From: Bolinopsis microptera
Lineage: Eukaryota; Ctenophora; Tentaculata; Lobata; Bolinopsidae
NCBI RefSeq assembly: GCF_026151205.1
Contig: NC_087076.1
Location: forward strand, 5,074,902 to 5,138,901
Length of the DNA stretch: 64,000 nucleotides
Direction: 5' to 3'
A model generated the notes under the pieces. The model saw only the letters and a program-made list of their open reading frames with translations, was not told where the DNA came from and did no database searches. The position numbers and the translations under genes are program-made. Numbering within the stretch: position 1 is the first letter of the stretch; every line of letters starts with the position of its first letter. Positions 5,600-64,000 of the stretch are shown here, one piece after another.

Positions 5600-8500
5600 A
5601 CTCTAGAACTGGGATACAGATATTGTTACTTGTACCATACTCAGACGAAGTGCTCTACTCTAAACTGTATACATATATTGTTAGCTTGTACCATACTCGA
5701 CGACAGCAGCGCTCTACTCTCAACTAGGAACAGCTATGTTAGCTTGTACATACTCCAGAAAACAACAGTGCTCTACTCTAAACTGGGATACAGATTTTGT
5801 TAGCTTGTACCATACTCAGACGACAGCGCTCTACAACTTCAAACGTGATCCAGACTTGTTAAGTTTGCCATACTCAGACGACAGCGGTCTACACTAAACA
5901 GGATACAGATATATTGTTTAGCTTGTACCATACTCAGACGACCAGCGCTCTACTCAAAACTGGGAAACAGATATTGTTAGCTTGAACCATACTCAGACGA
6001 ACAGACGCACTACACTAAACTGGGATACAGAAATTGTTAGCTTGTACCATACCTCAACGACAGCGCTCCTAACTCTAAACTGGGATAACAGATATTTGTG
6101 TTAAAGCTATGTACCAAACTCATACTACAGCGCTCTAACTCTAAACGGAAACAGATATTGTTAGCTTGTACCATACCAGACGAACAGGTTTCACTCTAAA
6201 CAGGGGATACAGATATAGATTAGCTTGTACCCATACTCATACGACAGCGCTCTTTCTCTAAACTGGGATACAGATATGTTAGCTTGTACCATACTTCAGA
6301 CGACAGCGCTCCCACTCAAACTGGGAATACAGATATTGTTACTTGTACCATACACGAGACGACAGCGCCAAGCTCTAACTGGGATAACAGATAATGTTAG
6401 CTTGTACCGAAACTCAGACGACAGTGCTCAACATCTAAACTAGGATACAGATATTGTTAGCTTTACCTATCTCAGACTACAGGCGCTCTACTCTAAACTG
6501 GGATACAAGATATTGTTAGCTGTACCATACTCAGACGACAGCGACTCTACACAAAACTTGGAAACGAGAAAATGTTAGGCTTGTACCATACTCAGACGAC
6601 AGCGCTCTACTTCTAAACTGGACACATATATTGTAGCGTTGTACATACCGACTACAAGCGCTCTACTCAAACTGGGATACAGATATTATTAGCTTGTACC
6701 ATACCAGACGACAGCGCTCATACACTAAACCTGGGATACGAGAAATTGTTAGCTTGGTACCAAGACTCAGATCGACACGCCTACAGTAAACTGGGATACA
6801 GATAATGACTTAGCTTGTACCATACACAGACGACAGCGCTCTAAACTCTAAACTGGAAACACATATTGTTAGCGTTGTACCATACTCAGACTACAGTGCT
6901 CTATCTCCACTACACTGGATACAGATATTTGTTGAGCTTGTACCATACTCAGGATACAGGCGATCTACTCTAAACTGGGATACAGATATTGTTATCTTGT
7001 ACCATACTCCAGACGACAGCGCACTACTTCTAAACTGGGATACAAGATAATGTTAGCTTGTACCAACTCAGACGACAGCGGCGCTCTACACAAACTGGGG
7101 ATCCAGATAATGTTAGTTGTGCCAGTACTCAGACGACAGTGCTTCTTCCCTAAACTGTGAACAGATATTGGTTAGCTAAGTACCATAACTCAGACTAACA
7201 AGCGCTCTAACTGAAACTAACTGGGATACAGATATTGTATACTTGTACCATACTCAGCCGACAGCGCTCTACTCTAAACTGGAAACAGATATTGTTAGCT
7301 TTGTACCATACTCAGGACGACAGCGCTCTACAGTAAACTGGAAAACAGATATTGTTAGTTTACCATACACAGAGACAGCGCACTACTCTACACCTAGGTA
7401 TACAGATATTGTTAGCATGTACCAAACTCCAGACGACAGCGCTCTCTCTTTAAACTGGATACAGATATTGTTAGCCTTGTACCATAACTCACGACACGCT
7501 CTACAGTAAACTGGGATACAGATATTGATAGCTTGTACCATACTCAGACGACGAAGCGCTCTACTGTAGAACGGGGATACAGATAAAGTTAGCTTGTACC
7601 AAATACTCAGACGACAGCGCTCAACTCTAAAACTGGGATACAGATCTTGTCGATAGCTTGATACCATACTCAGAACACAGCGCTCTACTCTAAACTTGCT
7701 ACAGATATTGTTAGCCTTGTACCATACTCTAGACGACAGCGCTCACTCAACACTGGGATTTACAGATATAGTTAGCTTGTGCCATACTCAGAACGATCGC
7801 GGTCTACACTAAACTGGGGATACAGATAATATAGTGTTAGCTGTACCAAACGTCAGAAGCGACAGCGCTCTACTCTTAAACTGTGATTCAGATATTTAGC
7901 TTGTACATACTCAGACGACAGCGCACTACTCCTAACCTAGATACAGATATGTTAGCATTACCATACTCAGACGACAGCGCTCTACTCTAAACTGGGATAC
8001 AGATATTGTTAGCTTGTACCATACTCAGAGACGACAGCGGCTCTACGCTAAACAGGGATACAGATATAGTTAGCTTGTACCATACCCAGACGACAGTGTT
8101 CTAACTCTAAACAGGGATACAGATGATTGTGTAGCTTGTAACCATACACAAGACGACAGCGCCGTCTATGAAACTCTAAAACTGGGATACAGATATTGTT
8201 AGCTTACCAAACTCAGACGAAAGCGCTCTACTCTAAACTGGGATACAAGATATTGTTAGCTTGTACATACTCAGACGACAGCCTCTCCTCTAAACTGGGT
8301 ACAGATATTGTTAGCTTGTACCATACTCAGACGACAGCGCTCTACTCTAAACTGGGAATAACAGAAATTGGTTACTTGTAACCATACCCAGGACGACAGC
8401 GCTCTAACTCAAACCAGGGATACAGATAATTGTAGCTTGTACATACTCAACGACAGTGCTCTACTCTTAACTAGGATACATATAATTGTTAGCTTGTAAC

Positions 8501-10545
8501 CATACGCAGACGACAGCGCTCTACTCTAAACTGGATAACAGAGTATGTTAGCTTGTCCAAACTCAGACGACAGCGCTCTACTCTAAACTGGGATACAGAT
8601 ATTGTTTAGCTTGTACCATACTCAGACGACAGCGCTCTAACGCTAAACTGGTATACAGAAATTGTTAGCTTTACATACTCAACGACAGAGCTCTACTCTA
8701 AAAAACTGGGATCTACAGTATATTTTTTACTGTACAATGTACCATACTCAGACGACAGGCTCTACTCAAAACTGGGATACAGATTTGTTAGCTGTACCAT
8801 ACTCAGACGACAGTGTTTTTCTACTCTATACAGGATATCAGAAATTGTAAGCTTGTTACCATACTCAACGACAGCGCTCTACTCTAAACTGGATACAGAT
8901 ATTGTTAGCTGTACCATACACAGACGACAGGGCTCTTCTCTAAACAGGGTACCGATATTGTTAGCTTGTACCAAACTCAACGACAGCGCTACTACTCTAA
9001 CCCAGGATACAGATATTGTTAGCTTGTACCATACTCAGACGACCACGCTCTAAACTAAATCTGGGGATACAGAATAGTTAGCTTGTACAGAACACATACT
9101 ACAGGTGCTCTACACAAATACTGGGATACAGATAATGTTAGCTTGTACATACTCAACGACAGCGCCCTAATCTCTAAACTGGGATACAGATATTGTTAGC
9201 TTGTACCATAGCTCAGACGACAGTGTTCATACACTAAACAGGGATACAGATATTGTTAGCTTTGTATCCCCATAACTCAGTCAGACGACAGCGCTCTACT
9301 GTAAACTTGGATACAGATATTGTTAGCTTGTACCAACTCAGACGACAAGCGCTCTACACTCAACTAGGATACAGATATTGTGAATTAGCTTGTGAGCCAT
9401 ACTCAGACGACAGCGCACTACTCGTAAACTGGGATACGATATATGTTATCTTGTATTACGCATAGCACAGACGACAGCGCTCTACTGTAAACTGGGAATA
9501 CCGATATTGTTAGCTTGTACCATACACAGACGACAGACAGCTCATCTACTCTAGACTGGGATACCATATATTTTAGCTGTACCATACTCATACGACAGTG
9601 CTCGACTCTAAACTGGGATACGATATTTGGTTTACTTGTTAGCCAGTACTCAGACGACAGCGCTCTACTCAAACTGGAAACAGAATATGTTAGCTTTACG
9701 CAAACTCAGACACAGTTGGCTTCTACTCAAAAATTGGGATACAGATTGATTTTTTTTGTGGGTTTTTTTTTATTTTGTTAGCTTGTACCATGACTCAGAA
9801 CGACAGTGCTCTACTCTAACTTGGAAACAGATATTGTTAGCTTGTACCATACTCCAGACACGAGTGCTCTACGTCTAACCATGGATACAGATATTGTTAG
9901 CTTTGTACCATACACAGACGACAGTGTTTCTACTCTAACTGGGAAACAGATAAAGTTTAGCTTGTACAATACTCATACGGACAGCGCTCTACTCCAGACT
10001 GGGGATACCAGCTATTGTTATCTTGTACCAAACGTCAGACGACAGAGCTCTACTCTAAACGGGATACAGATATTGTTAGCTGTACCATAGCACAGACTAC
10101 AGCGCTCTACTCAAATAAACTGGAACAGATAGTTGTTAGCTGTCCATACTCATACGTACAGCGCTCAACTCTAAACTGGGATACAGATATTGTTAGCTTG
10201 TGCATATAACTCAGAGCACAGCGCACTACCTCTAAACTGGGATAACAGATAATTGTTAGCTTGTACCATACTCAGAAGACAGCGCTCTACTGTAAACATA
10301 GGGATACGAAAGTTGTTAGCTAGTACCACACTCAACTACAGCGCTCTACTCTAAACTGGATAGCCGATATAGTTAGCTTGTACCATACTCAGACGACAGT
10401 GGCGTCTACTCTAAACTGGCTACAGATATTGTTAGCTAGTACGACAACCCTACGAAAAGCGCACTACGTCTAAACTGGGATACAGATAATTGTTTTGCTT
10501 GTACCATACTCAGACGACAGTGCTCTACTCATAAACTGGATACAG
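5600..10545. repeat. Module A1: 58-bp satellite array (short copy)
   Basis: About 85 head-to-tail units of a 58-bp satellite. Landmarks in unit order are GGGATACAGATATTG, TTAGCTTGTACCATAC, CAGACGACAGCGCTC and TACTCTAAACT. Recurrent variants include CAGTGTTC or CAGCGCAC for CAGCGCTC, CTGTAAAC for CTCTAAAC, and ACAGGG for CTGGG. Single-base indels are scattered throughout. This copy is about 1.6 kb shorter than A2-A4 and lacks their left A-run/CCTTA boundary; it joins the single-copy flank directly. About 28 foreign bases (T- and G-rich) interrupt it at 9747-9776. Confidence 0.97.
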
Positions 10546-12324
10546 TAAGGATTTTTTTTTACAAATGTCTCAGACCATAGCAAGATCTGTGAATTTTAGC
10601 AGAAGACCCACTCGACAGCGCCAATTTGCGCATTTATTATCCCAAGCCCGATACCCACTTTGCGCTCCCTATTATATTAACATCTCGTAAACGTCATAAT
10701 GAAGGTTCCTTTATTCAGTTTAAAGATTAAGTTTTTTTCGATTCTCGGCACGTAGCGCCGACACGACACGTAGCCGGTGCGAAGCTTACTTTGGTTGGCT
10801 AGGATGGGGGGAAGGCGCAGCCGCCCCAGAAATATTTGTGAGAAGTATGTGATTTAGACGACAATTGGCTAAAGAAATTATTAGGACAGTAATAATCAGA
10901 CATCACAATAATGACAAATTTGGGGGGCTAGGGGTGCGCCGCCCTGGCCATCGAATATTTTTGAGAAATAGGGTGTTCCAGACGACAATTGTAGACAGCA
11001 ATAATCAGAGCATACAATAATAGCAAGTTTGTGGCGGGGGTGGGTGGGGGGGGGGGCGCAACCCCCGTGAAACTTTTGATAAATAGGGTGATTCAGACTA
11101 CATTTGCAATAAAAGAAATTTGTAGGAGAGCATAATCAAACCACAAATATATAAAGTTTGGTTGGCAAGGGGAGCGACCCTCCAGGAAAATTTTTGAAAA
11201 TAGGGTGATAAACTGCATTTGGCATTAAAAGAAATTTTGGTGGATAGTAATAATCAGACATCACAAAATATCAAGTTGGGGGGCCGGGGGGGGTGGGGTT
11301 GCGACAGCCCCCAGAAAATTTTGAGAAATATATGTGTTTTAGACGACATTTGGCATTAAAGAAATTTGAGGACAAATAATCAGACATCACCATAATCTAA
11401 TAATACCAATTGGAGGCAGGGGGGCGCACCCCCCGAAAATATTTGAGAAAATAGGGTGAATTCAGACGACATTAGGCAATTAAAGAAATTAGTAGGGCAT
11501 AAAATCCTGAACATTAGACAATAATAAAATTTGGATTGGCTAGGGAGGGGCTGGGGGGCGCAGCCAATCAGAAAATTGTTGAGAAATTATGTGTTTTTTA
11601 GACGACATGTTAGTCATTAAAGAAATTTGTAGGACAGTAATTAAATCAGACAATCCACAATAATAAGTTTGGAGGCTAGGGCAGCGCATCCCTGCCTTCG
11701 GAACATTTTGAGAAAAAGGTGTAACCAGACGACATTTGTGGGACACAATAATCAGACCTAACAATAAGACAAGTTGGTGGTCTGGGGGTTGGCGCAGAAA
11801 ATAAACAGACATCACAAAAATATAAAGATTGGGTGACTGGTGGGGGGGGGGCGCAGCCCCAAGAAAATTTTTTTAGAAATTATTTGTTTTAGAGACGACA
11901 TTAGGCAATTAAAGATAGTGTAGGAAGCGGCGATAATACAAATTTGGGTGCAGTTTCCCCCTGAAATTTTTGAGAAATAGGTGTTCCAGACGACATTTGG
12001 TGAGACAGCAATGAATCACCAGTACAATAATACAAGATTGGTGTCAGGCTGGGGGGGAGCGCTTGATAATAATCATGACATCAAATAATATAAAGATGGG
12101 GGAACTGGGGGGGGGGGGGGGGGGCGCAGCCCGCCCAATAAAATTTTTTAGAAATATTTGGTTTTAGACACATTAGGCATTAAAAAATTTGTAGGAGCGG
12201 CGAAAATACAAAGTTGGGTGCACCCCCGGAAAAATTTTTTGAGAAATATGGAGATTTCAGACGACATATTGTCATTAAAATTTGTTAATATTTCAACATC
12301 ACAAAAATACAAAGTTGGGGGGAT
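10546..12324. repeat. Module B1: leader plus 14 units of a ~120-bp G/C-hairpin repeat
   Basis: Starts with TAAGG plus a T-run, then a leader of about 250 bases with conserved landmarks ATGTCTCAGACC, GCCCGATACCCAC, CATAATGAAGGTTCC and CGGCACGTAGCCG. Fourteen units follow, each with CAGACGACATT, GGCATTAAAGAAATTTG, AATAATCAGACATCAC and a G-run, a GCGCAGC core, a C-run, then GAAAATTTTTGAGAAAT. The G-run, GCGCAGC core and C-run can fold on themselves. Units 9 and 12 are shortened: the G-rich part runs straight into AATAATCAGACATCAC. The same order and the same two short units recur in B2-B4. Confidence 0.93.
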
Positions 12325-12557
12325 AGGGTGGAACTCAGTCTACTTGGTCACATTGAATAAGACTTATTGTATGGGGGATGGATTTGGGAATAATTTACGA
12401 AATGCTAAAGACGATTTGACCTGTTGCGTGTCTGTTTATCAAACATACATAGAACACAGCCCACTTACCAGCGAAGACCATTGCATGGGGACTAGGGCTT
12501 ATTTTTTTGGGGTTCAATTATTTATTTTTTTCCGGGCTTCCCCCATGCTACGTGTTC
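12325..12557. other. Module C1: ~0.2-kb spacer
   Basis: Single-copy within the repeat unit. Conserved landmarks are GGAACTCAGT, CACATTGAATAAGTACATA, CGATTGCCTGTCGTGTCG and CAGTCATAAACACAGCCCAC, ending with a T-rich stretch and CCGGGGTCTTCCCC (a GGGG/CCCC hairpin). A 142-codon frame crosses B1 and C1 here, but indels break it in C2-C4. Confidence 0.8.
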
Positions 12558-15500
12558 TGCATTCTAGTTGCCGACCCCACTATTAGAGTGGCAGACTCAA
12601 CATTTAGGTTTGCCAGACCCACTATTCTTAGAGTCCAGACCCACAATTCTGGTTTCCATATCCTCATATTCTAGTTCATAGACCCCCAATTTGGTTGACA
12701 GAGTGAAGGAATTACCAAATCTGGTTGCCGAGATTCACTCTTCCTAGAGAGGAGACCCACTCTTCTAGTAGGTACTGAGTCAAACCGCACTAGTTCTAAA
12801 ATGCAGACCCACCATTCTAAGCCAGAACCCACTCTCTTCTGAGGCGAAGAACCTCCCATTCTGGTTGCCACCCCACTCTTCTAGAGAGTAGACCGACCAA
12901 TCCGATTGCCGACCCACATCTTGAGTGAAACACCCACATTTCGGGTTGCCGACCCACTAGTCTAGACTCTAGACCCAGACGGCCGCATTCTGGTTGCCAT
13001 ATATCCTGTATCTAGTTTAACCCCCAATTCTGGTTGAACACTTGACAGAGTGTATGACTTACCATTCTGGTTGCCAGACCCACTCATCTAGAGTGGAAGA
13101 CCCCACTATTCTAGAATTCTACCCACCGATTCTTGGTGCCAGACCCACTCTTCCTAGTAAGAAGACCCCACTAAACAGAAATCCTGACCCACCTATACTT
13201 GTTTCCAGACCCACTACCCTAAGGCAGACCCACCATTCTGATTGCCAGACTCACTCACTTGATTCCCTAAATTGCCGACCATATTCTGGTGCCAGACCCA
13301 CTCATAAAGATTGCAGACACACCAATCTAGTTGCCAGACCCACGTCTACTAAAGTGTAACCCACCTATTATTCCTAGAAAGACCCACCTTTCGGGTTTGT
13401 CAGACCTCACCTTCAAGGGTTCGTACACCCACCATTCTGGTTGCCAGACCCAACTTCTTAGATTGCAGACCCACCATTCCAGCTGCCAACCCTCTCATCT
13501 CCAAGTCAGACCCACTACTCTGGTTGTCAGACACCAATTCTTCAAGGGTGTAGCTTACACCCACACATTCTGGTTTGCCATACCAACTTCTAGATTGCAG
13601 ACCCACCATTCCAGCGGCCAGAACCGCACCACTCGGTGGTCCAGACCCACTCTCAAGGGGTACCCCGGGTTTTGTTTTAAAAAAACACCCACCATTCTGG
13701 TTGCCAGACCAACTCCAGAATTGCAGACCCACCATTCCAGCTGCCAGAACCCACTTCTTCTCAATGCATATCTACCACTCTGTTGGTCATACTCCACACT
13801 TAAAGGGTGCAGACTGCAGTACCGACCGTTCTGGTTGCCAGACCCAATAGAAGATTGCAGACCCTACAATCTAGCATGCCAAACCCACTCTTCTCAATGC
13901 AGACCACCACTCTTGGTTGTCAGACCCACACTTGATCCTTGAAGCCTGAAGGTGGTGCAGACCCACCATTCTGGTTGTTATAAACCAACTTACTAATTGC
14001 AGACCCCACACCATTCCAGCTGCCAAGACCCACACATCATTCCAAGAGGCAGATCTACCACTCAGGTTGTCAGGAACCCAAACCCACTTCTTTAACCTAA
14101 GGTGCAGACCCCACCAATCATGTAGCCATAGAACCCACTCTAATTTGCAGTAACCCCACCATTCTAGCCTTGCCCAGAGAAACCGCACTTCTAGAATTGC
14201 CGACCCAACATTCTACTTCTAAAGCTTGCCGATAACCCACTCTTCTCAAGTGCAGACCCACCACAACCTGCGGTTTTCATACCACTCTTCAAGGGTGCAG
14301 GGACCCACCACTTTTATCTGGTTTGCAGCCCCTCATCAAGTGACGTACACCCACCTTTCTGGTTGCCGAGACCCACTTCTCAAGATTGCATACCCAGCCA
14401 TTCCAGCTGCCAAGACCCACTCGTCTCAAGTTTCAGAACCCACCACGGTTCGGGTGTCAGACCCACTCATTTTCAAGGGTTGTTCGAACACACCACTATT
14501 CTTTGTTCCTGGTTGCCATACCAACTGAATAGATTGCAGGTCCCACCCTAGTTCCAAGCAGTCTCAGATGAGTGGCAGATGAACCCACTCTTCTCCAAGT
14601 CCATACCACACCATTCTGTTGTCAGAGAAGGACCACCACTCTAAAAGGTTGAACGCCTCCACCCACAGCCCCCGCCTTCAACAACCATTTAGCGGCCAAA
14701 ACCACCCCACGCTTCTCTCTCAAGTGCAGACCTCCCCCACAACATTCCAAACTTCATGGTTTGCCGACCCCACTCTTCTAGAGTGAAAGTGACCTCATTA
14801 TTCTCGATGCTGATTTCCACAATTCTGGTTGCTAGAAAGAAGAAGATAACCAACTCCTAGATTGCAAGGCAGACAACCCCAAACCATTGCAATATCCATA
14901 GCCCGCCATATATAAAGAAGACCCCCCCACTCATTCTCCATGCCAATTACTCCCACCATTCATGTTTGAGTCGCACAGACGCCCACGTCAACCTCGTTAA
15001 GACCTCTTATCTCGAATGAGATCTCCCCAATTCTGGTTGCATTGCTATACCAACTTCTAACTTCTAATTGGCAGACCCTAAAGACTCCGACACCTCCAGG
15101 AACCATGCAGCGAAAGCAGACCCCATCCAACCTTACTAGATTTGCATACGGACCACAGCGGAATCCCCAACTCAGACTGATAATGCAGGGACCCACCAAT
15201 CTTATTTCCCTGTCATTCCAACATTACCAGGCCGCAAGAACCACCCTACTTCCCCCGACTCTTTCTCAAAGTGCAGAACCCCACCCACCATTCTGGTTGT
15301 CATACCCACATCATTAAACCTTCACAATGGTGTCGACGCCCAACAATATATAATTCAGGTTAACAAAGAACCCCCACCATCCCCTAGATTTGCATATGCA
15401 TACCCAAAAGCCCACCCACCATTCCCAACTGCCTATATTGCATACATGAACCTAACGAACTTCGCCCGCCACACCATTCACCGCTGCCTAGAGTATTAAC

Positions 15501-15692
15501 TCACCGCACTATACACATTGCCCAAACCAAAACCCCCACCACACCACTCAGATGTCCAGACCACGCTTAAGGGTAACAGACCCATCATTCTGGAATGCCA
15601 GAACCCACTCATTCTATTCTAGATTGCAGACCCACCATTCTAGCGGCCAGTCCCACTCTCCGCAAGTGCAGAACCCACCACTCTAAAGCAAC
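12558..15692. repeat. Module D1: diverged 21-bp minisatellite, inflated copy
   Basis: Roughly 21-bp units that begin CAGACCCAC and end in types such as CATTCTGGTTGC, TCTTCTAGAGTG, CATTCCAGCTGC, TCTTCTCAAGTG, CACTCTGGTTGT and TCTTCAAGGGTG. The types follow a fixed order that recurs in D2-D4. Spliced-in landmarks are an ATATATCC segment near 13000 and a CTTGATCCTTGAAGCCTGAA segment near 13930. D1 is about 0.5 kb longer than D3 and D4, and nearly all the excess lies in 14,560-15,560, where extra bases are scattered among recognisable units. Confidence 0.92.
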
Positions 15693-15968
15693 AGGGGGTG
15701 AAATAATATCAACAAATGGGTCCGAAATAACAAATACACAAAATAAATTCCGAACCCTCCACGTGTGTGTGGCTGGTTGGCACTAACGGGTGGTGGTTCC
15801 ACTTGTTTATAGTACAAAGGTTGTGGGCCTTGCCAACGTCAAAGTTCCCATAGGAACCAACATGGAAGACATCACAACAGCCTAACCAGCGCACCAGAAA
15901 TTTCTCTTTCCGATATTCAGTGTTACAAGAATAGTAACACACACAAATGACTAAACATTGGACAATCC

Positions 15969-16010
15969 TTTGATTACGATAAGCTCTAGAGAGCTACTAA
16001 ATCACCGAGG
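15969..16010. repeat. E1 copy of conserved long hairpin
   Basis: Degraded copy of the palindrome whose consensus arm is CTGGTGATTTAGTAGCTCT. The right arm GAGCTACTAAATCACC is intact here; the left arm carries an indel and substitutions. Confidence 0.75.
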
Positions 16011-17773
16011 AAATTCTCATACAGCTTTCAGTCCATCGAAGTACCCACCACAGAGCTAAGGATTCAATCGCTATCCTGACAACAAGACAACACTGATATT
16101 GAGAGTCCAGGGCACTTCCTCCCTCCAGTAACCATCTTTTCAGGTCATTTCCAGTTAAAACCCGTAATGCGTAAGGCTGGACACACGCTAAGACACAGCG
16201 CGTGCTAAGACAGCATTAGGGATTTAAAATCTGACTACGAGGACACACTGATAGCTGAGAATTCCCCTGACACTTCTCTCCATAACCACTTTTCAGGACT
16301 CGTTAGCATTGGCCACACTCTTCATTGAAGTGTTACTGACGGCTCTAACAATCATCTAGTAGCAGCATAGTTAGACTGACAAAACCCATACTGGTTCATT
16401 CAGTGTTCTACGCGAAGAATCTCAAACACTCGAAGAACAGTTTCATACTGGACCTCCTGCAGAGCTTCTTTTTCACAGCCTGCCCCATTGACACGGGACC
16501 CTTAGATCTACAGTACCCTGGGGGAGCATAGCTCACTAAGCATAGTGGACCTATAGTTCTGAGACGCAAAGCTAACCGGATCAGAGATAAACATCTATGC
16601 AATGCATAGTAGGGATGCGAAATAGAACATACAATGTTTATCGAAGCAATAACTTCCAATCTTTTGATTCCTTTTTTTTTAGCTCGACGATACATGGTAA
16701 CAGTTTCATGACTGACATTCCTCCTGTCAGGTTAATTGAGGAAATCATACCGCTATTTGCGTTATTACATGGCAAGTATCTGGACTTATGATAACTTAGA
16801 TCTCCATCAACATAAATTCCTCCATATACCCAGCTGCATTTAAAGTAAAAGCGCTTAACAGCACCAGTTTTTAACTCCAGATCGATCTGAACATCTCAGA
16901 CCACGTCACAATGGTAATTCCACATCGAGATGACTTCGTCGCAGACATTAAGGAGTATACGGTAAAGAACTACGAAGAATTCGCAAGGGACGATCAATCC
17001 AATCATCAACCCCATAGGACCAGGAACCCTTCCTCCCAAATAGCCAGAAAAAACACTCCAGTGGACAAAGGAACTTCCCACTTGTGATGTTCCTCCACAA
17101 ATTAAATACAGGAACTTTTATTTTTCTGGAACACACATCAGATGCTAACATGGACGCAATTCAGAATAGGTCATCAGCCCACTAGTTTTATTTACAGAAC
17201 GTGGCAAACAACGTCAACTTCATACGCAAGATTGCAACACTGTTTCGGATAACAGCAACATCCCGCACCTCCTCTACTAGTGCAAAAAAAATCCAGATCA
17301 TGACGTCAGAATTAGAATAATTGGTAAACTCTACCTAAAACACCAGTAAACTACATCATATCTTCAATATTGATGGAACAGTCGACAAGACAGGATAGGG
17401 AAAGACTCTTTTGGGTAACCTCCCTTGGATTCTTCAACCAAGAACTTCGCTAAAACCCATACTAGGAACTCACAAAACCATAAGCCCATCTCCCATAGAG
17501 ACATATCTCCCAGCTTTGACCTTGCTCGTAAGTCCGCTTGTCTACCCGCAGAATTACTACAACGAAAGTGGGTTTGCTCTGAGACAGTACGTGACAGCTT
17601 CAAGACTCCAGGGTTCTGTGCAGTTGATATTTATTATTAAATATTTCGTAAATACTTTGGGGAGTCCAGGCGAGCACTAGAGAGTTGCCATTCGTGGGCA
17701 ACGGTGAGAAGGCCTCCATCTTTACGTAAGAGCCAGAAACCGTTGACCCAAACAGAGAGCGATAGAATATCAC

Positions 17774-17779
17774 AATAAA
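17774..17779 (+). promoter_or_regulatory. AATAAA polyadenylation-like signal, E1
   Basis: AATAAAGATTGTTTAATTTT follows a GA-rich tract and is kept in all four E copies. It could end a plus-strand transcript, but no transcript is shown. Confidence 0.3.
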
Positions 17780-17821
17780 GATTGTTTAATTTTGCAAAAA
17801 TTTCTCGTCATGTGACAACCT

Positions 17822-17857: not shown

Positions 17858-17949
17858 AAAAACTCATCGATTTTGCTCCCGCTAACATGATTTTTTCTGA
17901 AAATTTTTGTCAGCAGATCATAAATATAGCCAATATGTAAAAAAAAAAA

Positions 17950-51594: not shown

Positions 51595-53440
51595 TAAGGT
51601 TTTTTTGTTTTAGCAATGTCTCAGACCCCATAGCAATCCTGTGAATTAAGGCAGACGCCACACGAACAGGCGCCCAAAATTTGCGTAATTAAATTTATAG
51701 AATCAATATAATTGATACATTATGAGCCCAATCCCGATACCCACTTTTGCCTCCCAATTATATATATCATCTCGTAACTTCATAATGAAGGGTTCCGTAA
51801 ATTCATTTTAAAGATTAAGTATATATCGATTCTCGGCACCGTAGCCCGACACCACACTAGCCGTGTCGAAGCTTCTTTCTTTGGTTGGCTAGGAGGGGGG
51901 AAGGCCAGCCCCCAGAACTTATTTGAGAAATTTTAGATGTGTTATCGACTCTTTTGGCTTAAAGAAATTTTTAGGACAGTCAATACTCAGACAACACAAA
52001 TAATACAAAGTTGGGTGGCAAGGGGGGCGTGGCAGCCCAGGCCGAATCGAAAATTTTGAGAAATCGGGTGTTCCAGACGACATTTTAGGACAAGCAAGAA
52101 ATCAGACATTACAAAAATACAAGGTTCGGTGGCTTGGGGGGGGGGGGGCGCAACCCCCGAAAATTTTGAGAATTAGGTGATTCGACGACTTTTGGCATTA
52201 AGAAATTTGTAGAGAGCATAATCATACATCAGAAAAATAAAAAATATTTGTGGGCTAGGGAGCGTAATCCCCCAGGGAGAACTTTTAGAAATAGGTGATT
52301 TAAAACGGCAATTTGGCATTAAGAAATTTGGAAAGTAATAATCAGACATCAACAATAATATAAAGTTGGGGGTCCGGGGGGGTGGGGGGGGGCGCGCAGC
52401 CCCCCAAAATGTTTTGAGAAATAATAATTGTTTTTAAAAGGATACGAACAATTGGCATTAAAGAAATTTTGTTGGACAGGTAATAATCAGAACATCACAA
52501 TAATCTAATAATACAAATTGGGAGGCTAGGAGGGGGGGAAAGGGGGGCGCACCCCCCGGAAAATTTAGAAACATAGGTGTATTCCGACAGCATTACGGCA
52601 TATAAAGAAATTAGTAGGGCATTAATAATCTGATAACAATCACAAGAATATAAAGTTATTGGCTAGGGAGGTGGGGGTGGCGCAGCCAATCAGAAAATTT
52701 ATGTTGAGAAATTATGTTTTTTTACGGGAACGACATTTGACATAAAGAAAATTTGTAGGAACAGTATTTATAATCAACAACACAATAATAAGTCGGAGGG
52801 CTAGGCAGGCGCAGCCCTGCCTTCGGAAACTTTTTCGAGAAAAAGGGTTTTCCAGACGACATTTGTTGGACAGCAAATCAGACAAACAAAAGTACAAGGG
52901 TAGAGGGCGGGGGGTGGGCGCAGTACTAATCATACATCACAATAAAATATAATTTGGGGACTTTGGTGGGGGGCGCAGCCCCCACGAAAATAGTTAGAAA
53001 TTATTGTTTAGACGACATTAAGGCATAATGAATTTGTAAGGACGGCGATAATACTAAGTTGGGGGTGCAAGACCCCGGAAAATTTTTGAGGGAATATGGT
53101 GTTCCAGACGACATTTGGTTGAGACAGCAATAATCAGACATTACAATCATACAGAATTGGTGGGGCTGGGGGGGGGGCGCCGTAGATAATCAACAGTCAC
53201 AATAATATAAAGTTGGGACTGGGGGGGTGGGGGGCGCAGCCCCCAAGAAAATAATTAGAAAATATTTTGTTTTAGAGCGACATTAGCATAAGAAAATTTG
53301 TAGGACGGCGATAATACAAAGTTGGGGGTGCAGCCCCCGGAAAATTATTGCGAAAATAGGAGTTTTTCAGTCAAGAGCGACAAATGGCATTAGAAATTTG
53401 TAATTTCAGACATCACAATAATACAAAGTTGGGGTCTAGG
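51595..53440. repeat. Module B4: leader plus 14 ~120-bp units
   Basis: Same leader and unit series. An extra AT-rich stretch of about 35 bases at 51,684-51,720 in the leader is absent from the other copies. Confidence 0.92.
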
Positions 53441-53660
53441 TGGAACTCAGTACTTTCACATTGAATAAGTACATATTGTATATGGATTAGAATAGATTTA
53501 CGAAAATGCTAAAGTCGATGCCTGTCGTGTTCGATTTAAATCAAACAGTCATAAACACAGCCCACTACGAGGCGACCACTGCATGGTTGACTAGGGGCTT
53601 AATTATTTTTTTTTGAGGGGTTCAATTTTTTTTCCGGGGTCTATCCCCTTGACGACGTGT
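53441..53660. other. Module C4 spacer
   Basis: All C landmarks present, ending CCGGGGTCTATCCCC before the first D unit. Confidence 0.8.
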
Positions 53661-56296
53661 CTGCATCTAGTTGCCAGACGCACACAATTATAGTGCAGAC
53701 TCAACATGTTTGGTGCCAACCCCCCTATCTAGATCCAGACCCACAATTCTGTTGTCATATCTCCTAAATACAAGTTCAGAGACCCCAATTCTGGTTGACA
53801 GAGGAAGAATTACCATTCTGGTTGCCATATTCACTCTTCTAGAGAGGAGACCCACCTTCCAAGTAGTACAGAGTCAAGACCCCACTATTCTCAAATGCAG
53901 ACCGCCACCTTTCTGGTTGCCAGCCCTCTCTTCTGAGGCTATGACCTACCTTCTGGTTGCCAGCCCCACTCTTCTAGAGTGTAGACGCACCATTCCGAGA
54001 TTGGCCTAGACCCACTATTTCTGAGTGAAACACACCACCTGTTCGGGGTTGCCAGGACCCACTATGCTAGAACTCTAGACTCCAGAAGCACAATCCTGGT
54101 TGCCATAATATCCTAATTCTATGTAGACCCCCAATTCTGGTTGACACTTGACAGAGAGTAGACATACCAATCTGTTGCCAGACCCACTCTTCTAGAGTGA
54201 AGACCCACTTTCCTAGAATTCGTTACCGCACCCTTCTTGTTGCCGTTAGACCCACCTCACAGCTGAGAGAGTAAACCCACTATCATGAAATTCTGACCCA
54301 CCTTCTTTGTTTCCAGAACCCTCTAGCCTAGGTGCAACGCCTCCATTCTGATTGGCCATAACTCCCTCATCTTGATTCCCTGATTGCCGACCCACTCTTC
54401 TGGTTGCCAGACCCATCTTAGTAGAGTGCAGACACAACCAATCTAGTTGCCAGAACCCCACCTCTTCTTTCTAAAGTGTAGACCCACCTATTATTCAAGA
54501 GTGAGGACCACCCTCGGGTTGTCAGACTCACTCTTCAAGGGTGTACGTACACCCACCATTCTGGTTGCCAGCCGCAACTCTAGATTGCAGACCCACCATT
54601 CGCAGCATGCCAGAACCCTCTCCTTCTCAAGTCCAGACCCACTACTCTGTTGACAGACCCATTCTTCAAGGGTGTACGTACATCCCACCATTTCCGGTTG
54701 CCAGACCAACTTCTAGATTGCAGACCCACCCATACCACTGCCAAGAACCACCACTCGTGGTGTGTCAGGCCACACTTCAAGGGTGTACGTACACCGCACC
54801 GATTCTGGTTGCCAACCATCTTCTAGATTGCAAGACACCACCATTCCAGCTGCCAGACCCACTCATCTCAATCAATATCACCACTCTGGTTGTCAGACCC
54901 ACTCTTTAAGGTGCAGACTGCAGACGACCGTTTCTGGTGCCAGACCCTTATAGATTGTCAGAACCCAACATTCTATGCTGCCAGACCCACACTTCTCAAG
55001 TGCAGACCCACCACTCTGGTTGTCAACCCACTCTTGATCTTAAGCCTGAAGGGTCCGACCACCAATCAGTTTGTTAGACCAACTTCTAGATTCAGACCCA
55101 CCATCCAGCCCAGACCCACACATCTCAAGTGCAGAACTACCACTCTGTTGTCAGACCCACTCTTTAAGCCTGAAGGTGCAGACCCACCATTCATGTTGCC
55201 AGAAACCACGTCTAGATTGCAGACCCACATTCTAACTCCGAGAACCCACTCTAGATTTGCAGACCCAACATTACGTAGCTGCCATACCCACTCTTCTCAA
55301 TGCAGACCCACCACACTGGTTTGTCAAGCCCTCACTATCTCAAGGGTGCAGACACACCACTCTGGTTGTCAGACCCACACTATCGAAGGTTGTACGTACA
55401 CCCACCATTTCTGGTTGCCGGACCCACGTTCCACGATTTGCAGACGCCAACCATTCCAGCGCCAGACCCACTCCTTCACAAGTTCAAGAGACCACCACTC
55501 GGTTGTCAGACCACTCTCAAGGGTGTACGTACACCCACTATTCTGGTTGCCGACCACTTATAGGATTGCAATTCCCAACCTTCCAGCGTCCAGTTGAGTG
55601 CCAGGATGCACTCTCTCCAAAGTCCAAACCCTCCAATCTGTTTGTTCAGGACCCACTCTTAAAGGGTGCCATACCTCACCATTTAGCGGCCAGAACCCAC
55701 GCTTCTCAAGTGGAGACCCACCACTCTGGTGCCGAACCCACTCTTCTAGAGTGAAGAACTCATTATTCTCGAATGCTAGATCCCCAATTCTGTTGCTAGA
55801 CCAAACTTCTAGGATTGCAGAACCTCCACCATTCCATCCGCCGATAGACCCCCTCTTGCTCAGTGCAGACGTACCCACATTCTGTTTGTCAACCCACTCT
55901 TCTAGAGTGAAGACTCATTATTCTCGAATGCAGATCCACAATTCTGGTTGCTAGACCAACTCTAGAGTTGCGAGGACCCACCATTCCAGCCGCAAGAAGC
56001 CTCTCTTCACAAGTGCAGACCCCACCATTCCTGGTTGTCAGACCCACTCTTCAAGGTGTAGACCCCAACAATACTGGTTAACATACCCACTTCTAGTTGC
56101 ATACCCACCATTCAAGCTGCCAGACCCACATGCACAAGTGCACACCCACCACGTCTGGTTGTCCAGACCCACTCTTTAAAAAGGGTACAGACCCAATCAT
56201 TTCTGGTTGCCAGAGAACCCACTTCTCTAGATTGGCAGACCCACCATTCAAGCTGGCCAGAACCCACTCTTCTCTAAGTGCAAACCCCCACTCTAG
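53661..56296. repeat. Module D4: 21-bp minisatellite
   Basis: Same order of unit types and the same length as D3. The plus-strand frame of 235 codons at 54,890-55,597 is a translation of the repeat and is not kept in the other D copies. Confidence 0.93.
54539..54554. repeat. 16-bp palindrome GGGTGTACGTACACCC
   Basis: Perfect copy; another perfect copy is at 55,521-55,536 and near-perfect ones are near 54,669, 54,780 and 55,390. Confidence 0.88.
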
Positions 56297-56545
56297 GCAA
56301 CAGGGTAGAATAATATCACAACAAATGGGTCACGATATCCGCTCCGACTCACGGGTGTGGCCAGGTTGGCACTACGGTGGTGTGCTCTCTTGGTTGAGTA
56401 CAAAGGTTTGGACTTGCCAACTCAAAGTTCCATCGGAACCAGAGTAACACTAAACACATACCCAGCACAGGGAAATTATCTCTTTCAGATATCCAGGAAT
56501 TGCAAGATAGTCCACACAACACCAGTACGATACATAGTGACAATC

Positions 56546-56586
56546 CAGTGATAGTTAGTAGCTCTAAGAGCTACTAAATCACCAGG
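56546..56586. repeat. E4 copy of conserved long hairpin
   Basis: The best-preserved centre, TTAGTAGCTCTAAGAGCTAC, continues into CTAAATCACCAGG. The left arm has one inserted A. Confidence 0.85.
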
Positions 56587-58367
56587 AACATCCGACTTTC
56601 GCTCCGTTTCCAGGTCCCAACGAAGTCAACCCACCACTGTAGCAAGTGAATCTCAATACGCACCTCCTTACTACAAGGACACACTGATATTGAAGTATCC
56701 TGGCACTTCTCCCTCACATAACCACATATCATGTCATTTATCAGTAAAAAACAGCTAATGCGTACGGCAGCCACATGGCGCTAACACAGGCTCATGGAAA
56801 AACAGAAATAGGGAATAAAACTCTGACAACGGAGGACCCACTGATAGCGAGAAATTCCTGACACTGTCTTCCTCCAGGATAACCACTTTTCATGGACCGT
56901 GTAAGCTGTTGCCACACACTTCATTGAAGTTTGACTGGACGCCACTACAAATCATCAGTAGCAGCATAGTTTGAACTGACATCCCTTACGGTTCTATTCA
57001 GTTTCCACCGCGTAAGATCTCAACACACGAAAACATTCATCTCGGACATCCAGCAGAGCTGCTTTTTCACAGAAAGCTCCCCAATACACGGGGAACCCTT
57101 AGACTACATACCCTGGTGCGAGCATAGCTCACAAAAGCATAGAGGACCTCTTAGTTCTGAGACGCAAGCTAACCGGAACATGAATAAACATCAATGCACT
57201 GCATAGGGGATGCAAAATAGAACATACCATGTTTATTCGAATGCATACTCAATCTTTTGATTCATTTTTTTAGCTCGACGTACATGGTAACATTTCAGAC
57301 TGAACATTCTCCTTCAGGTAATTTGAGGAAACAAACCGCTATTTGCGTTAAACCATGCAATATCAGGACTTATGATAACTTAGGATCTCCATCAATCATA
57401 AATTCCTCTCACGGATTCCCAGGCTGCATTTAAAGCGTCTTATACAACGCAAGCACCATCCACCTCCAGGTTTCGTTCTAGAAACATCTCAGACAACTCA
57501 CTAGGTATTCACATCGAGTAGGACTTCGATTCCAGACATTAAGAGTATAACGGTAAAGAACTAAGTCGGAAGAATTCGCAAGGGAACGAAAACATTCCAA
57601 CCAGCATCCCCATAACCCAGAACCTTCCTCCAAATAGCCACACTCAGTAACAAAGGAACATTCCCACTTTTGATGTTTCCTCCACAAATTAAGATACAGG
57701 AACTTTTATTTTTCTGGAACTTCACAACAGATGGCTAACATGTCGCTTTCAGAATATGTCACAGCCCACTAGTTTCTATTCAGAACGTGGCAAACAACGT
57801 CAACTTCAAGACGGCAAGATGTGCGAAACACCTTTTCAGAGAAGCACAACATCCGCAGCATCCTCCACTACAAGAGCATCCAGATCATGACGTTCAGAAT
57901 GAAATAATTGGTAAACTCTACCTTAACACCAGTAAACTACATCCATAACTTCAAATATGTGGAACATTCCGACAAGACTGGATAGGGAAAACTCTTTTGG
58001 GTTAACCACCTTGGATTCTTCACCAGGAACTTGTCGCTAAACCCCATACAAGAACTCAACCTAGGCGCATCTCCACGCATAGAGACAGAATCTCCCAGGC
58101 TTTGACCTTGCCTCGAAGACCCTGTCTACCCGCCAGAAGTACTACAACGGAAGTGGTTTGCTCAGAGACAGGAAGATGACAACAGCTTCAAGACTCCAAG
58201 GGGTTCTGTTGCATTGAGATTAATAATTTATGATTTCGTATATACATGGGAGACCTGGGCGTGCACTAGCAGGAGTGCATTCTGTGAGGCTCGTTGAAAA
58301 GGCCTCCAGCTTAAACGTAAGAGGACAAACCTGTTTGACCACAACAGAGAGAGAGATAATAACAACA

Positions 58368-58373
58368 AATAAA
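58368..58373 (+). promoter_or_regulatory. AATAAA polyadenylation-like signal, E4
   Basis: AATAAAGATTTTAATTTTTG, matching the other copies. Confidence 0.3.
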
Positions 58374-58415
58374 GATTTTAATTTTTGCAAAAAATTTCTC
58401 GTAACATGTGCCAGA

Positions 58416-58454
58416 CCCTCCCATCCCCCACTCAACCCCCTACCCCTCCCCCCC
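58416..58454 (-). other. G-quadruplex-prone strand, E4
   Basis: C-runs of 3-7 on the plus strand followed by CTAAAAAACTC. Confidence 0.6.
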
Positions 58455-58553
58455 TAAAAAACTCATCGGAATATTTTCTTCCCGCGAACCATATTTTTCT
58501 GAAATTTTTGTCAAGCCAGATCTGTAAAATCTATCAATATGAAAAAAAAAAGA

Positions 58554-61500
58554 CCTTATGATACAGATATTGTTAGCCTTGTACCATACTCAGACGGTAA
58601 CAAGTCGCACTACTCTAAACGTATAACAGAGTAATGTTAGCTTGTACCAACTCAGACAACAAGCGCTCTACTCTAAACTTGGGATACAGATATTGTTAGC
58701 TTGGACCATACTCAACGACAGTGCGCATCTCTAAACTGGGATACAGATATGTTGCTTGTACCATACTCAGACGACGAGCGCTCTACTCTAAACTGGGATC
58801 TACAGATATTGATAGCTTGTGACTCATAGTCAAGCGACAGCGCTCGACTCGTAAACTGATACAGATGATTGTTATCTGTACCATACTCAACACACGCCTA
58901 CTCTAAACTAGGTACAGATATTGATAGCTTGACCATACTCAGAACGACAGCGCGTTCTACTCTAACCTGGGATACAGATATTGTTAGCTAGTACCAAACA
59001 CAGACGACATCGCTCTTACTCTAAACAGGATACAATATTGATATCTTGTACCATACTCAACTACAGCGCCTACTGTAAACGGTGATAACAGATATTGTTT
59101 AGCTTGTACCATACTCAGACGACAGCGCTCTACTCTAAAACTGTGATACATATATTTTAGCTTGTAGCCATACTCAGACTACAGAGCTCTACTCTAAACT
59201 TGGGATACAGATATTGTTAGCTTGTACCCAATACCTCAGAACGACAGCGCTTTACTCTAAACTGGGAATACAGATATTGTTAGCTAGTGACCATACACAT
59301 ACGACAGCGCACTACTCTAAACTGGTATAGCAGATAATGTTAGCTTGTACCATACTCAGACGACAGCGCTCTACACTAAACGGGGAACAGAATTGTTAGC
59401 TTGTGGCCATACTCAGCGACGAGTGCACATCTCTAAACTGGGATACAGATATTGTTAGCTTGTAACCATACTCAGACGACAGCGCTCCTACTGTAAACTG
59501 GATACAGAATGTGTTAGTCTGTACAACTCAGACGACAGCGCTCTACTCTAAACTGGGAGAACACAAATTGTTAGATTGTACCATACTCAGCCGACAAGCG
59601 CTCTAATACTCTAAACTGGGATACAGCCAATTGTTAGCTTGTACCATACTCAGACACAGCGCACTACTCAACTAGGATTACACATATTGTTACTTGTAAC
59701 CATACTCAGACGACAGTGCACTACTCAAAACTGGGATACAGATATTGTTTACTTGTACCGATACACAGAACGACAGCCGCTCACTAACTCAAAACTGGTA
59801 TACACATATTGTTTAGCTTGTACCATACTCATAACGACAGTGATCAACTCTAAACAGGGATAACAGATATTGTTAGCTTACCAATACTCAGACGACAGCG
59901 CCTACTGTAAACGGGGATACCGAATATTGTTTGCTGTGTAACATACCTCAGACGACAGCGCTCTACTCTAAACTAGAAACAGATATTGTAAGCTTGTACC
60001 ATACTCAGAAACGACAGCGCTCAACTCTAAACTGGAAACAGATAATGTTACTTGTACCATAGCTCAGACGACAGCGTGCTCTAACTGTAACAGGGATACA
60101 GATATTGTTGAGCTATGTAACCATACACAGATCACAGCGCGCTAATCAGACTGGGATAACAGATATAGTGTAGCTGTACCATACCAACACAGTGGCTCAA
60201 CGTCAAAACTGGGATACAGGTATTGTTAGCTTTGTACCTACTCATACGACATCGCACTACTCTAAAGTCGGTATACAGATATGGTTAGCTTGAACCATAC
60301 TCAGACGACATTGATTGCTCTACTCTAAAAGGGATACATATTTTTGTTACTTGTACCAATACTCAGACGACCAGCGCACTAACTCTAACTGGATACAGCT
60401 ATTGAACATGGCAGTACTCAGACGACAGCGGTCTACTCTAAACTGGGATACGATAAATTGTTAGCATGTACCCATACTCAGACGACAGCGCTCAACTCCT
60501 TAAACTGGGTATACAGATAGTTGTTAGCTTGTACCATGACACAACTACAGCGCTCTACTCTAAACTTGGGATACAGAAAATTTAGCTGTACCATATCCAG
60601 ACCGACAGCGCTCTACTCTAAACTGAGGCTACAGAAATTTTAGCTTGTAACCATACCAGACGACAGCTGCTCTACTAACTCTAAACTGGATACATGATCT
60701 TAGTGTCGCTTGTACCAAACTCAGACCCCGACGTGTTCTACACTAAACTGGATACAGGATATTGTTAGCTTGTATCCATACCTCAGACGACAGCGCTATC
60801 TCAAACTGGATACAGAATTGTTAGCTTGACCATACCAGACGACAGCGCTCTACTCTAAACACTGGTGATACAGATATTGTAAGCTGTGTAACCAAACTCA
60901 GAACGACAGCGCTCTACTCTAAACTGGAAACAGATAATGATTTAGCTTGTACCATACCAGAACCCGACAGTACCTACTCTAAACTAGTATACAGATATTG
61001 TTACATGTACCATACTCAGACGACAGCGCTCTACTCTAAACTGTATATCAGATATTGTTAGCTTGTACCATAACTCCAGACACAGCGCTCTACTCTAACT
61101 GGGATACAGATAATGTTAGCTTGTACCACACTCAGACGAACAGCGCTCACTCTAAACTGGTATACAGATATTGTTAGCTGTGTACCATACACAGACGGAC
61201 AGCGCTCTACTCTAAACTGATACAGATATTGTTAGCTATACCATAACTCAGACGACATCGCTCTACTCAAACTGGTACGAATTTGTTAGCTGAACCATAT
61301 CTCATACGCGAGCGCTCTACTGTAAACTGATACGATATTGTTAGCATGTACCATAACTCCGACGACGACGTCTCCTACTCTAACTGGGATACACATATTG
61401 TTACTTTTTACCATACACAAACGACAGTGCTCTATCTAAACTGGGATACAGTATATTGTTAGCTTTACCAATACTCCGACGCCAGCGCTCTACTCCTAAA

Positions 61501-64000
61501 CTGGGATACAGATATTGTTAGCTTGTACCATACTCAGACACAGCGCTCCTACTCTAAACTGGGATACAGATAATGTAGATTGTAACATACTCAGAACGAC
61601 GCGCTCAAACTCTAAACAGGGATACAGATATTGTTAGCGTTGTGCCTACACAACGATCAGTGCTCCTTCTCTAAACAGGATACAGAAAATGTTAGCTTGT
61701 ACCAACTAGACGACAGCGCTCACTGGTAAAGCTGTGGATAGCAGATATTGTTAGCTTGTACCAAACTCAACGACAGCGCTCTACGTCTAAACTGTGAATA
61801 ACAAGATATTGTTAGCTTGTACCATACTCAGACGACAGCGATCTACTGTAAACTGGGATACAGATATTGTTATCTTTGTAATCCATACTCAACGACAGCG
61901 CAGTCTACTACTCAACTAAACAAGATACAGATAATGTTACTGTACCATACTCAACGACAGCGCTCTACTCAAACTGGATACAGATATTGTTAGCTTGTAC
62001 CAAACACAACGACAAGCGCTCTAAACTGTAAACTGGATACATATATTGTTAGCTAGTACCATACACAGACGACAGCGCCTACTGTAAAGCATGGAGTACA
62101 GATATTTGAATAGCTTGTACCATACTCTGACGACATCGCTCTACTCAAAAACAGGGATACAGATATGATAGCTTTAGGCCATACACAACGAACAAGCGCT
62201 CCGACTCTAAACTGGATACAGATATTGTTAGCTTGTACATACTCAGACGACATCGCTCACCTCTAAGACTGGGATACAGAAATTGTTTAGCTGTTCCATA
62301 CTCAGATACGACAGCGGACTAACACAAAACTGGGATACTATATATTGTTAGCTTGTACCATACTTCAGTACGAAGCGCCTCTACACTAAACTGGGGATAC
62401 AGAAATTGTTACATTGCACCATACTCCAACACAGCGCTCTACTCTAAAACTAGAGACAGAAATTGTTAGCATGTACCATACTCAGACGACAGCGCTCTAC
62501 TCTACATGATAACCAGATATTGTTAGCTAGTACCATACCTCAGGAAGACACAGCGCCTACTCTAAACTGGGATACAGATTTGTTAGCTTGTAACCATACA
62601 CAGGACGACATGTTCACTCTAAACAGGGATACAGAAATTGTTAGCGAATGTACCATACGCGTCAGACGACAGCGCTCTACTCTAAAGCTGGGATCAGATA
62701 TTGTTTAGCATGTCCCATACTCAGACGACAGAGCTCTACTCAAAACTGGGATACAGATAAAGTTATCTTGAACCAAACTCAACGGACAGCGCTCTACTCT
62801 AAACGGGATACCGAAATTGAATTAGCTTGTACCAACTCATACGACAGCGCTCTACTCTAAACTGGTATACAGATATTGGTTACATTACCATACTCAGACG
62901 ACAGCTCCTACTCAAACTGGGATACAGATATTGTTACTTGTACCATACTCATACGACAGTCTCTACTCTAAACTAGATACAAGATATTGTTAGCTGTACC
63001 ATACTCAGAGGCACAGCGCACTATCTCAAACTGGAAATCAGATATTGTTTGCTTGTACCAAACTCAGACGACAGCGCTCTACGCTAAACTGGTATACAGA
63101 TATTGTTAGCCTGTACCATACGTCAGACACAGAGCGCTCTACTACTAAACTGGATACAGATATGGTTAGCTTGTACCATACTCAGACGACATTGCACTAC
63201 TCTAGAACTGGATGCTACAGATATTGTTAGCTTGTACCAATGTACCTACTCCCAACGACAGCGGTCTACTCTAACTGGGATACAGAATTGTTAGCTTGTA
63301 ACATACTCAGACGACAGTGACCTACTCTAAACTGAGGATACAGATATGTTAGCTTGTACCATACTCAGACGTCAGCCTGCTCGACATCTAAACTGGATAC
63401 AGTATATTGTAAGCTGTACCATACTCAGGAACGACAGTGCTCGTTCTCTAAACTGGGAGTACAGATATATTGTAAGCTGTACCAACTCAGACCGACAGCG
63501 CTCTACTCTAAACAGGGATAGCAGAAGATAGTTAGGCTTTGTACCATAGTCGACTATCACGCTCTACTCAAATCTGGATACAGATAGGTTAGCCTTGTAC
63601 CATACTCAACACCGTGCTCTAACTCTAAACAGGGATACAGATATGTTAGCTAGTATACCACACTCAGAACGACAGCGCTCTACTCGTTAAAAACCCCCTG
63701 GGGAATACCGATATGTTAGCTTTACCATACTCAGACTGACAGTGTATCTACCTACTCTAAACTGTATACAGATATTGTTCGCTTGTACCATACACAGACG
63801 TACACGCGCTCGTACTGTAACCTGGGATACAGATATTGTTAGCTTGTACCTCCTACCAGACGGAACGACAGCGCTCACTCTAAACTAGGAACAGATATTG
63901 TTAGCTTGTACCATACTCAGACGACAGCGCTCTACTCAAACTGGGATCCAGATATTGTTAGCTTGTACCATAACTCAGACTACAGCCGCTCCTACTGTAA
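58554..64000. repeat. Module A5: 58-bp satellite array, cut by window end
   Basis: About 94 units of the 58-bp satellite from the A-run/CCTTA boundary to the window end. If like A2-A4, it should continue for about 1.1 kb beyond the window before the next B module. Confidence 0.97.

What the first reader, a model, noticed from the sequence alone, without database searches (positions are those of the whole stretch)
5600..64000. A ~13.5-kb composite macrosatellite built of four nested repeat or spacer modules plus a linker
The landmark ATGTCTCAG at the start of B lies at 10,565, 24,521, 38,181 and about 51,616, giving periods of 13,956, 13,660 and 13,435. The A-left boundary recurs at 17,950, 31,633, 45,043 and 58,554. 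Within each unit three unrelated tandem repeats (58 bp, about 120 bp, 21 bp) and two non-repeat segments keep the same order and length. Macrosatellites and higher-order repeats are known, but one unit holding three different internal tandem arrays in fixed proportion is unusual. The order implies that the whole 13.5-kb block was amplified as one piece, for example by unequal exchange or rolling-circle amplification. I do not recognise this family.
Basis: seen in the sequence. Interest (0 to 1): 0.88.

Follow-up and report, generated by a model that had tools for sequence, protein, structure and literature searches.

The report
Transposon-in-satellite repeat pasted as raw reads
The repeating 13-kb block is a local 58-base satellite carrying one jumping element that itself contains two short-repeat arrays and a second element, and in this stretch of the assembly it is written in error-filled letters, part of which also stand on another contig, so its number of copies and its place here cannot be trusted.

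Summary
The periodic order is there: four transposon-bearing blocks in the window, six on contig C5. Two corrections follow.

First, from about 5,600 on the letters look like unpolished single-pass long-read sequence. Six units differ from a clean copy on contig C3 by 5-13% insertions, 3-4% substitutions and 3-4% deletions. Majority vote of five units gives back C3 at all but 6 of 6,782 positions, all six single C or G deletions. Window 47,804-64,000 and 2.7 kb beyond (18,903 bp) is letter-identical, errors included, to the reverse complement of a stretch of C1. The right end switches from noisy array-type E to clean flank-type E inside a dispersed retroposon, as a misjoin would. The 13.4-13.96 kb period is inflated; about 13.2 kb is likely true.

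Second, the modules are not one unknown family. A is a 58-bp satellite seen only on C3, C5 and C1. B+C+D plus about 190 bp is a dispersed, apparently non-autonomous TIR transposon, hAT-like (TAAGG ends, 8-bp TSD), with two internal minisatellites. E is a 2-kb dispersed retroposon nested in it. Each C5 A block begins like C3's right A and ends like C3's left A, as unequal exchange or circle formation would give. Tandem repetition is probably real; copy number and C5 location are not shown.

The parts
1..5597 (+). Clean left flank (X_L), with a 61-bp minisatellite at 1-1899; a homologous copy (X_R) lies right of the array at C5:5,160,076-5,172,621
5600..10545 (+). A block 1: 58-bp satellite, noisy, partial (about the first 27 monomers of the unit missing, by chunk placement)
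10546..17954 (+). hAT-like element copy 1 with nested E: B about 10546-12311, C about 12312-12546, D about 12547-15700, E about 15715-17768, element 3' end to 17954
17955..24498 (+). A block 2
24499..31637 (+). hAT-like element copy 2 (C about 26290, D about 26519, E about 29455-31431)
29075..29298 (+). A run of about 224 A (92% matches) at the end of D of copy 2 that the clean C3 copy lacks; probably a read artefact
31638..38162 (+). A block 3
38163..45047 (+). hAT-like element copy 3 (C about 39944, D about 40168, E about 42829-44845)
45048..51594 (+). A block 4
47804..64000 (+). Stretch (continuing to window coordinate 66706) letter-identical over 18,903 bp, errors included, to the reverse complement of C1:19,012,777-19,031,679
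51595..58558 (+). hAT-like element copy 4 (C about 53426, D about 53655, E about 56324-58360)
58559..64000 (+). A block 5 (continues beyond the window to C5:5,139,923)

Best explanation
SHOWN: at C3 a TIR transposon of about 4.8 kb (B-C-D plus about 190 bp, two internal minisatellites) lies in a monomer of a 58-bp satellite, flanked by an 8-bp duplication GGATACAG; a 2-kb retroposon (E) lies inside it, flanked by a 13-bp duplication. On C5 this element alternates with satellite blocks of about 111 monomers whose start matches C3's satellite right of the element and whose end matches C3's satellite left of it. C5 from window about 5,600 to about C5:5,159.6 kb carries insertion-rich, largely unit-specific errors around the C3 sequence, and 18.9 kb of it recurs letter for letter on C1. 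INFERRED: these are uncorrected long-read letters placed by gap closing or an equivalent assembly step. One exchange between satellite left of one copy and satellite right of another (unequal crossing-over, or excision as a circle) made a unit of about 13.2 kb that was then amplified as one piece. The reads probably come from the array whose clean edges are seen at C3:660,589-676,139; this origin is the weakest step, about 0.6. Copy number, and whether any of it belongs on C5, stay open.
For: Raw-read nature: six units against C3 show ins 4.6-12.8%, sub 2.8-4.1%, del 3.0-3.8%; majority of units 1-5 differs from C3 at 6 of 6,782 positions (at least 4 of 5 agreeing), all single C/G deletions; 6-15 shared identical substitutions per pair of units; an exact 20-mer of A occurs 0.90 times per monomer at C3 against about 0.10 in C5. 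Pasting: 18,903 of 18,903 letters identical with C1. Misjoin: from C5:5,159,100 to 5,159,600 five of five 100-bp bins fit C3-type E better than flank E, with 10-27 errors each against C3-type E; from 5,159,700 to 5,160,075 there is 1 difference from flank E and 9 from C3 E. Transposon: 76 exact TIR matches in the genome, reversed-pattern control 0; 28 inverted pairs, each with one end of either type, half of them about 4.6 kb or shorter; exact 8-bp TSD in 8 of 10 copies, read by eye. E: TSD-like repeats in 8 of 10 copies printed, by eye; 2 of 2 E-less elements show the uninterrupted site. A: 136 + 63 + 12 exact 20-mers on C3, C5 and C1 make up all 211 in the genome. Unit formation: 6 of 6 A ends match C3 A1's end in register and 5 of 5 A starts match A2's start in register.
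Against: No raw reads were available, so 'gap closing' is inferred from the letters. The C1 patch begins in the middle of B and ends in the middle of A next to sequence without A or long B-E matches, so what anchored it there cannot be seen. At the left C5 border A follows sequence X_L; a 1-kb X_L probe has only two long matches in the genome, so a real read may join X_L to A. With 3 of 5 units agreeing, 33 positions differ from C3, 3 of them substitutions. Shared error positions are 1.5 to 2.1 times the independent expectation, as context-dependent errors give but slight true divergence could too. Chunk placement of the later part of the A blocks against A2 is ambiguous and differs between units, and one of four late consensus chunks fits A2 slightly better than A1 (1018 against 1012).
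Confidence: 0.8

Rival explanations
1. A real, recent array of six or more units stands at C5:5.080-5.160 Mb; it was merely left unpolished because short reads cannot be placed in it, and C3 holds a separate single-unit locus.
For: A starts next to X_L sequence, a 1-kb probe of which has only two long matches in the genome; the A starts and ends of all C5 units tested agree in register.
Against: Exact recurrence of 18.9 kb of noise on C1; the right end switches to another E copy where the noise stops; homologous flanks X_L and X_R on both sides, 87-95% alike in their main colinear pieces, look like two haplotypes or a duplication wrongly bridged.
Confidence: 0.2
2. The tandem order is itself an assembly product: reads of a single C3-type locus were chained through false overlaps inside the satellite.
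For: Element majority sequence equals the C3 element but for 6 of 6,782 positions; A1 and A2 are similar enough to mislead overlaps.
Against: A loop in an assembly graph would repeat the same errors; here errors differ between units, yet 6 of 6 A ends and 5 of 5 A starts agree in register and the five complete A blocks measure 6,464-6,547 bp.
Confidence: 0.12
3. The unit was amplified by rolling-circle copying of an excised 13.2-kb circle and then integrated, rather than by unequal crossing-over. (A variant of the best explanation, not exclusive of it.)
For: The A blocks begin and end alike and have nearly the same length.
Against: A single unequal exchange followed by homogenisation gives the same pattern; no circle was looked for.
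Confidence: 0.25

Closest known systems
Non-autonomous hAT-superfamily DNA transposons
   Same: Short TIR (TAAGG...CCTTA), 8-bp TSD, 3.3-5.0 kb in 19 of 28 end pairs; the one ORF of the element that was scanned had no Pfam match
   Different: Carries two long internal minisatellites; no autonomous partner was sought, so the likeness is by structure only
Transposons with internal tandem repeats that seed satellite DNA (MITE and Helitron/Helentron cases reviewed in PMC12628747; passages seen)
   Same: Tandem arrays inside a dispersed element; element length varies between copies
   Different: Here the internal arrays did not become the satellite; the element lies in an unrelated satellite
Macrosatellites / higher-order repeats (recalled, for example D4Z4)
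   Same: Unit above 10 kb in tandem, satellite plus other sequence in one unit
   Different: Copy number and chromosomal place not established; the unit is a satellite block with one nested transposon
Raw-read gap filling of assemblies (TGS-GapCloser paper PMC7476103; passages seen)
   Same: Raw long-read segments with a high error rate set between cleaner contigs
   Different: The software used for this assembly is unknown and no gap was observed directly

Membership tests
hAT superfamily | 8-bp target site duplication | tested here: met
   Exact in 8 of 10 copies with both ends read by eye, 2 of 10 unclear. hAT size and TSD description from passages of PMC3942097
hAT superfamily | Short terminal inverted repeats | tested here: met
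   18 identical bases at both C3 ends; 76 exact genome matches, reversed-pattern control 0; 28 inverted pairs, 20 ends unpaired. That TAAGG fits a YARNG hAT end is recalled
hAT superfamily | hAT transposase, own or of an autonomous relative with the same ends | not tested
   Six ORFs from the C3 locus, of which only one (L012:3082-3363) lies in the hAT-like element clear of E, had no Pfam match; no search for an autonomous relative was made
Non-LTR retroposon (E) | Variable-length TSD and simple 3' tail | tested here: met
   11-13-bp repeats and an (AG)n tail in 8 of 10 copies printed, by eye (one of them, L032, with extra bases between left repeat and element); L029 is 3'-truncated, L037 interrupted; 13-bp TSD in C3
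Non-LTR retroposon (E) | Reverse transcriptase, own or of a partner element | tested here: inconclusive
   Four short ORFs in E and one across its start had no Pfam match; the RT element nested in another E copy looks like an independent insertion
Macrosatellite / higher-order array | Several large units in tandem in genomic DNA | tested here: inconclusive
   Six noisy units agree in register, but clean sequence with A holds only one element (C3) and no reads were available
Raw-read insertion artefact | Indel-rich, largely random noise around one consensus, with an abrupt clean-noisy border | tested here: met

The most novel reading that the evidence does not exclude
A hAT-like transposon with two internal minisatellites and a nested retroposon lies in a single-locus 58-bp satellite and was captured with about 111 monomers as the unit of a young macrosatellite, by one unequal exchange or by a 13.2-kb circle: a snapshot of the birth of a higher-order repeat.
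Probability: 0.5. Interest if true: 0.45.

Novelty: new member of a known kind. Interest (0 to 1): 0.3.

Why it matters
It is a clear example of how a transposon lying in a satellite can become part of a long composite repeat, and a warning that unpolished, pasted long-read stretches can mimic a large array with exact-looking periodicity. Two mobile-element families of this genome (a hAT-like element with internal minisatellites and a 2-kb retroposon) are described with ends and target-site duplications.

Tried and rejected
Rfam (gathering threshold) and tRNA genes: none in the window. Coding content: 6 of the 44 ORFs listed for locus L012 were scanned against Pfam, no match up to E = 1; the noisy copies were not searched for genes. 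Organism: a TIR-HEAT ORF on C3 found 35 proteins, the best 92% identical but unnamed; the only hit with an animal's name was Bugula neritina at 32%; a COX1 family search did not complete; species not identified. Literature: six searches; only passages of PMC12628747, PMC3942097 and PMC7476103 were seen; no claim of absence from print is made. Considered and rejected: that B, C, D and E are array-specific; that the noise is biological divergence; that the RT element in another E copy is E's autonomous form (a repeat AAGTATCTGG on both sides, read by eye, points to a separate insertion).

Full report
What was checked. The window is G000:C5:5,074,902-5,138,901 of a 264.65-Mb assembly in 232 contigs. 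Outside the window two more follow, and the noisy region ends near C5:5,159.6 kb.

The letters. TRF already shows the oddity: the 61-bp array at 1-450 has 97% matches and 1% indels, while the 58-60-bp rows of the A blocks have 70-77% matches and 10-15% indels. A search with the A consensus gave 529 matches, about 150 of them listed; the perfect ones lie only at C3:660-676 kb, and the listed C5 and C1 copies are at 90-96%. C3 holds one clean unit: A1 (40 monomers), element 6,782 bp, A2 (about 111 monomers). Aligned to it, the six C5 units show substitutions 2.8-4.1%, deletions 3.0-3.8% and insertions 4.6-12.8%; units 1 and 2 are raised by local insertions, in unit 2 a run of about 224 A. Majority vote over units 1-5 departs from C3 at 6 of 6,782 positions when 4 of 5 must agree, all single C or G deletions next to the same base, and at 33 positions when 3 of 5 suffice, 3 of them substitutions. 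Pairs of units share 6-15 identical substitutions; shared error positions are 1.5 to 2.1 times the chance value, as context-dependent errors would give. None of the 76 exact TIR matches of the genome lies in the noisy stretches, although C5's holds six element starts and five ends.

Pasting and misjoin. C5:5,122,705-5,141,607 (window 47,804 onward) equals the reverse complement of C1:19,012,777-19,031,679 over all 18,903 letters. Independent reads would not share random errors, so I take it that the same letters were used twice. The C1 patch is cut in the middle of B and of A against unrelated sequence; a diverged copy of the hAT-like element lies 2.8 kb away (85-93% in B and D, 99% at its 3' end). 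On the right of C5, the five bins from 5,159,100 to 5,159,600 have 10-27 errors against C3-type E and more against the flank's E; from 5,159,700 to 5,160,075 the sequence differs from flank E at 1 place and from C3 E at 9. Sequence X is present on both sides of the array (C5:5,065,376-5,080,458 and 5,160,076-5,172,621), its main colinear pieces 87-95% alike, with unmatched stretches between them; a 1-kb probe from it has two long matches in the genome and six of 30-37 bp. Two alleles, or a duplication, bridged by raw reads is the simplest reading; it is an inference. The TGS-GapCloser paper says that inserted raw long-read segments still need error correction (passage); which software was used here is unknown.

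The element. B, C and D occur together at dispersed sites: 40 of 450 (B) and 40 of 297 (C and early D) first-look candidates were scored; their best matches run from 82 to 100% (B, many partial) and 90 to 100% (C/D), B also with weaker second matches. Left ends of four fetched copies share (T)AAGG plus a T run, with flanks that look unrelated by eye. The 3' 200 bp gives 40 scored matches at 98-100% out of 64 candidates. The exact end pattern occurs 76 times with a reversed-pattern control of 0; neighbouring ends form 28 inverted pairs, each with one end of either type, lengths 3,338-11,876 bp, 19 of 28 at 5,032 bp or less; 20 ends stay unpaired. In 8 of 10 copies read at both ends an exact 8-bp target-site duplication is seen, by eye; 2 of 10 are unclear. 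In C3 this duplication is GGATACAG, part of the A monomer. PMC3942097 gives 2.5-5 kb, 10-25-bp TIRs and 8-bp TSDs for hAT elements (passage). The one ORF scanned from the element had no Pfam match, and no whole-genome search for a transposase was made.

E. A probe of its first kilobase gave 294 first-look candidates; 40 were scored and match at 93-100%. Of ten copies printed, ten start within one base of the same place, and eight reach the same end with an (AG)n tail and show 11-13-bp target-site repeats by eye; L029 is 3'-truncated and L037 is interrupted by another element. In C3, E is flanked by AATATCAACAAAT; 2 of 2 E-less elements fetched show this site uninterrupted.

How the unit formed. 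By an exact 20-mer, A occurs only on C3, C5 and C1: 136 + 63 + 12 make up all 211 matches in the genome. In C5, the 1,300 bp before the element match C3 A1's end in register in 6 of 6 units (margins 45-74 over the best place in A2, 127-167 over other places in A1), and the 1,300 bp after it match C3 A2's start in register in 5 of 5 (margins 82-100). The A block, 111 monomers by consensus, follows A2 for about 40 monomers, then a stretch with about nine extra monomers, then A2 again, and ends like A1; three of the four late consensus chunks fit A1 better, one fits A2 slightly better (1018 against 1012), and chunk placement of the late part of single units against A2 is ambiguous. The consensus is imperfect, as 58-bp repeats are hard to align. 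So the unit is element + A2-like start + A1-like end, the product expected from unequal exchange between two copies or from a circle. Because the errors differ between units while the arrangement is the same, I take tandem repetition as probably real. The noise-free unit is about 6,782 + 6,438 = 13,220 bp.

Judgement. A known kind of process (transposon in satellite, amplified as a block), a new member of a known kind, seen here through an assembly flaw. Interest lies in the young nested structure and in the warning about pasted raw reads.

Noticed in passing
C5:5,065,376-5,080,458 and 5,160,076-5,172,621 (window 1-5,557 is part of the first): Two homologous flanks, same orientation, 87-95% identical in their main colinear pieces: possible haplotypic duplication left in the assembly.
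   Followed up: partly
window 1-1899; L018 5294-10000; L019 6343-10000: A 61-bp purine-rich minisatellite in both flank copies; an 11-bp AGAGTGGGGTT array lies nearby in L018 and L019.
   Followed up: no
L037 5649-9554 (C5:5,060,550-5,064,455): A non-LTR retrotransposon with a 988-codon open frame (endonuclease and RT Pfam matches), nested in a dispersed E copy, with a short repeat on both sides and a TAG-repeat tail.
   Followed up: partly
L037 627-3452: A second open frame with RVT_1 and PHD-finger matches.
   Followed up: no
L011 2649-3956 and C3:639,136-640,464: Two similar-looking ORFs on C3; the one scanned (L011) has TIR and HEAT-repeat matches, and its closest database relative (92%) is unnamed.
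   Followed up: partly
C1:19,034,437-19,039,371: A diverged hAT-like element copy 2.8 kb from the pasted noisy block on C1.
   Followed up: partly
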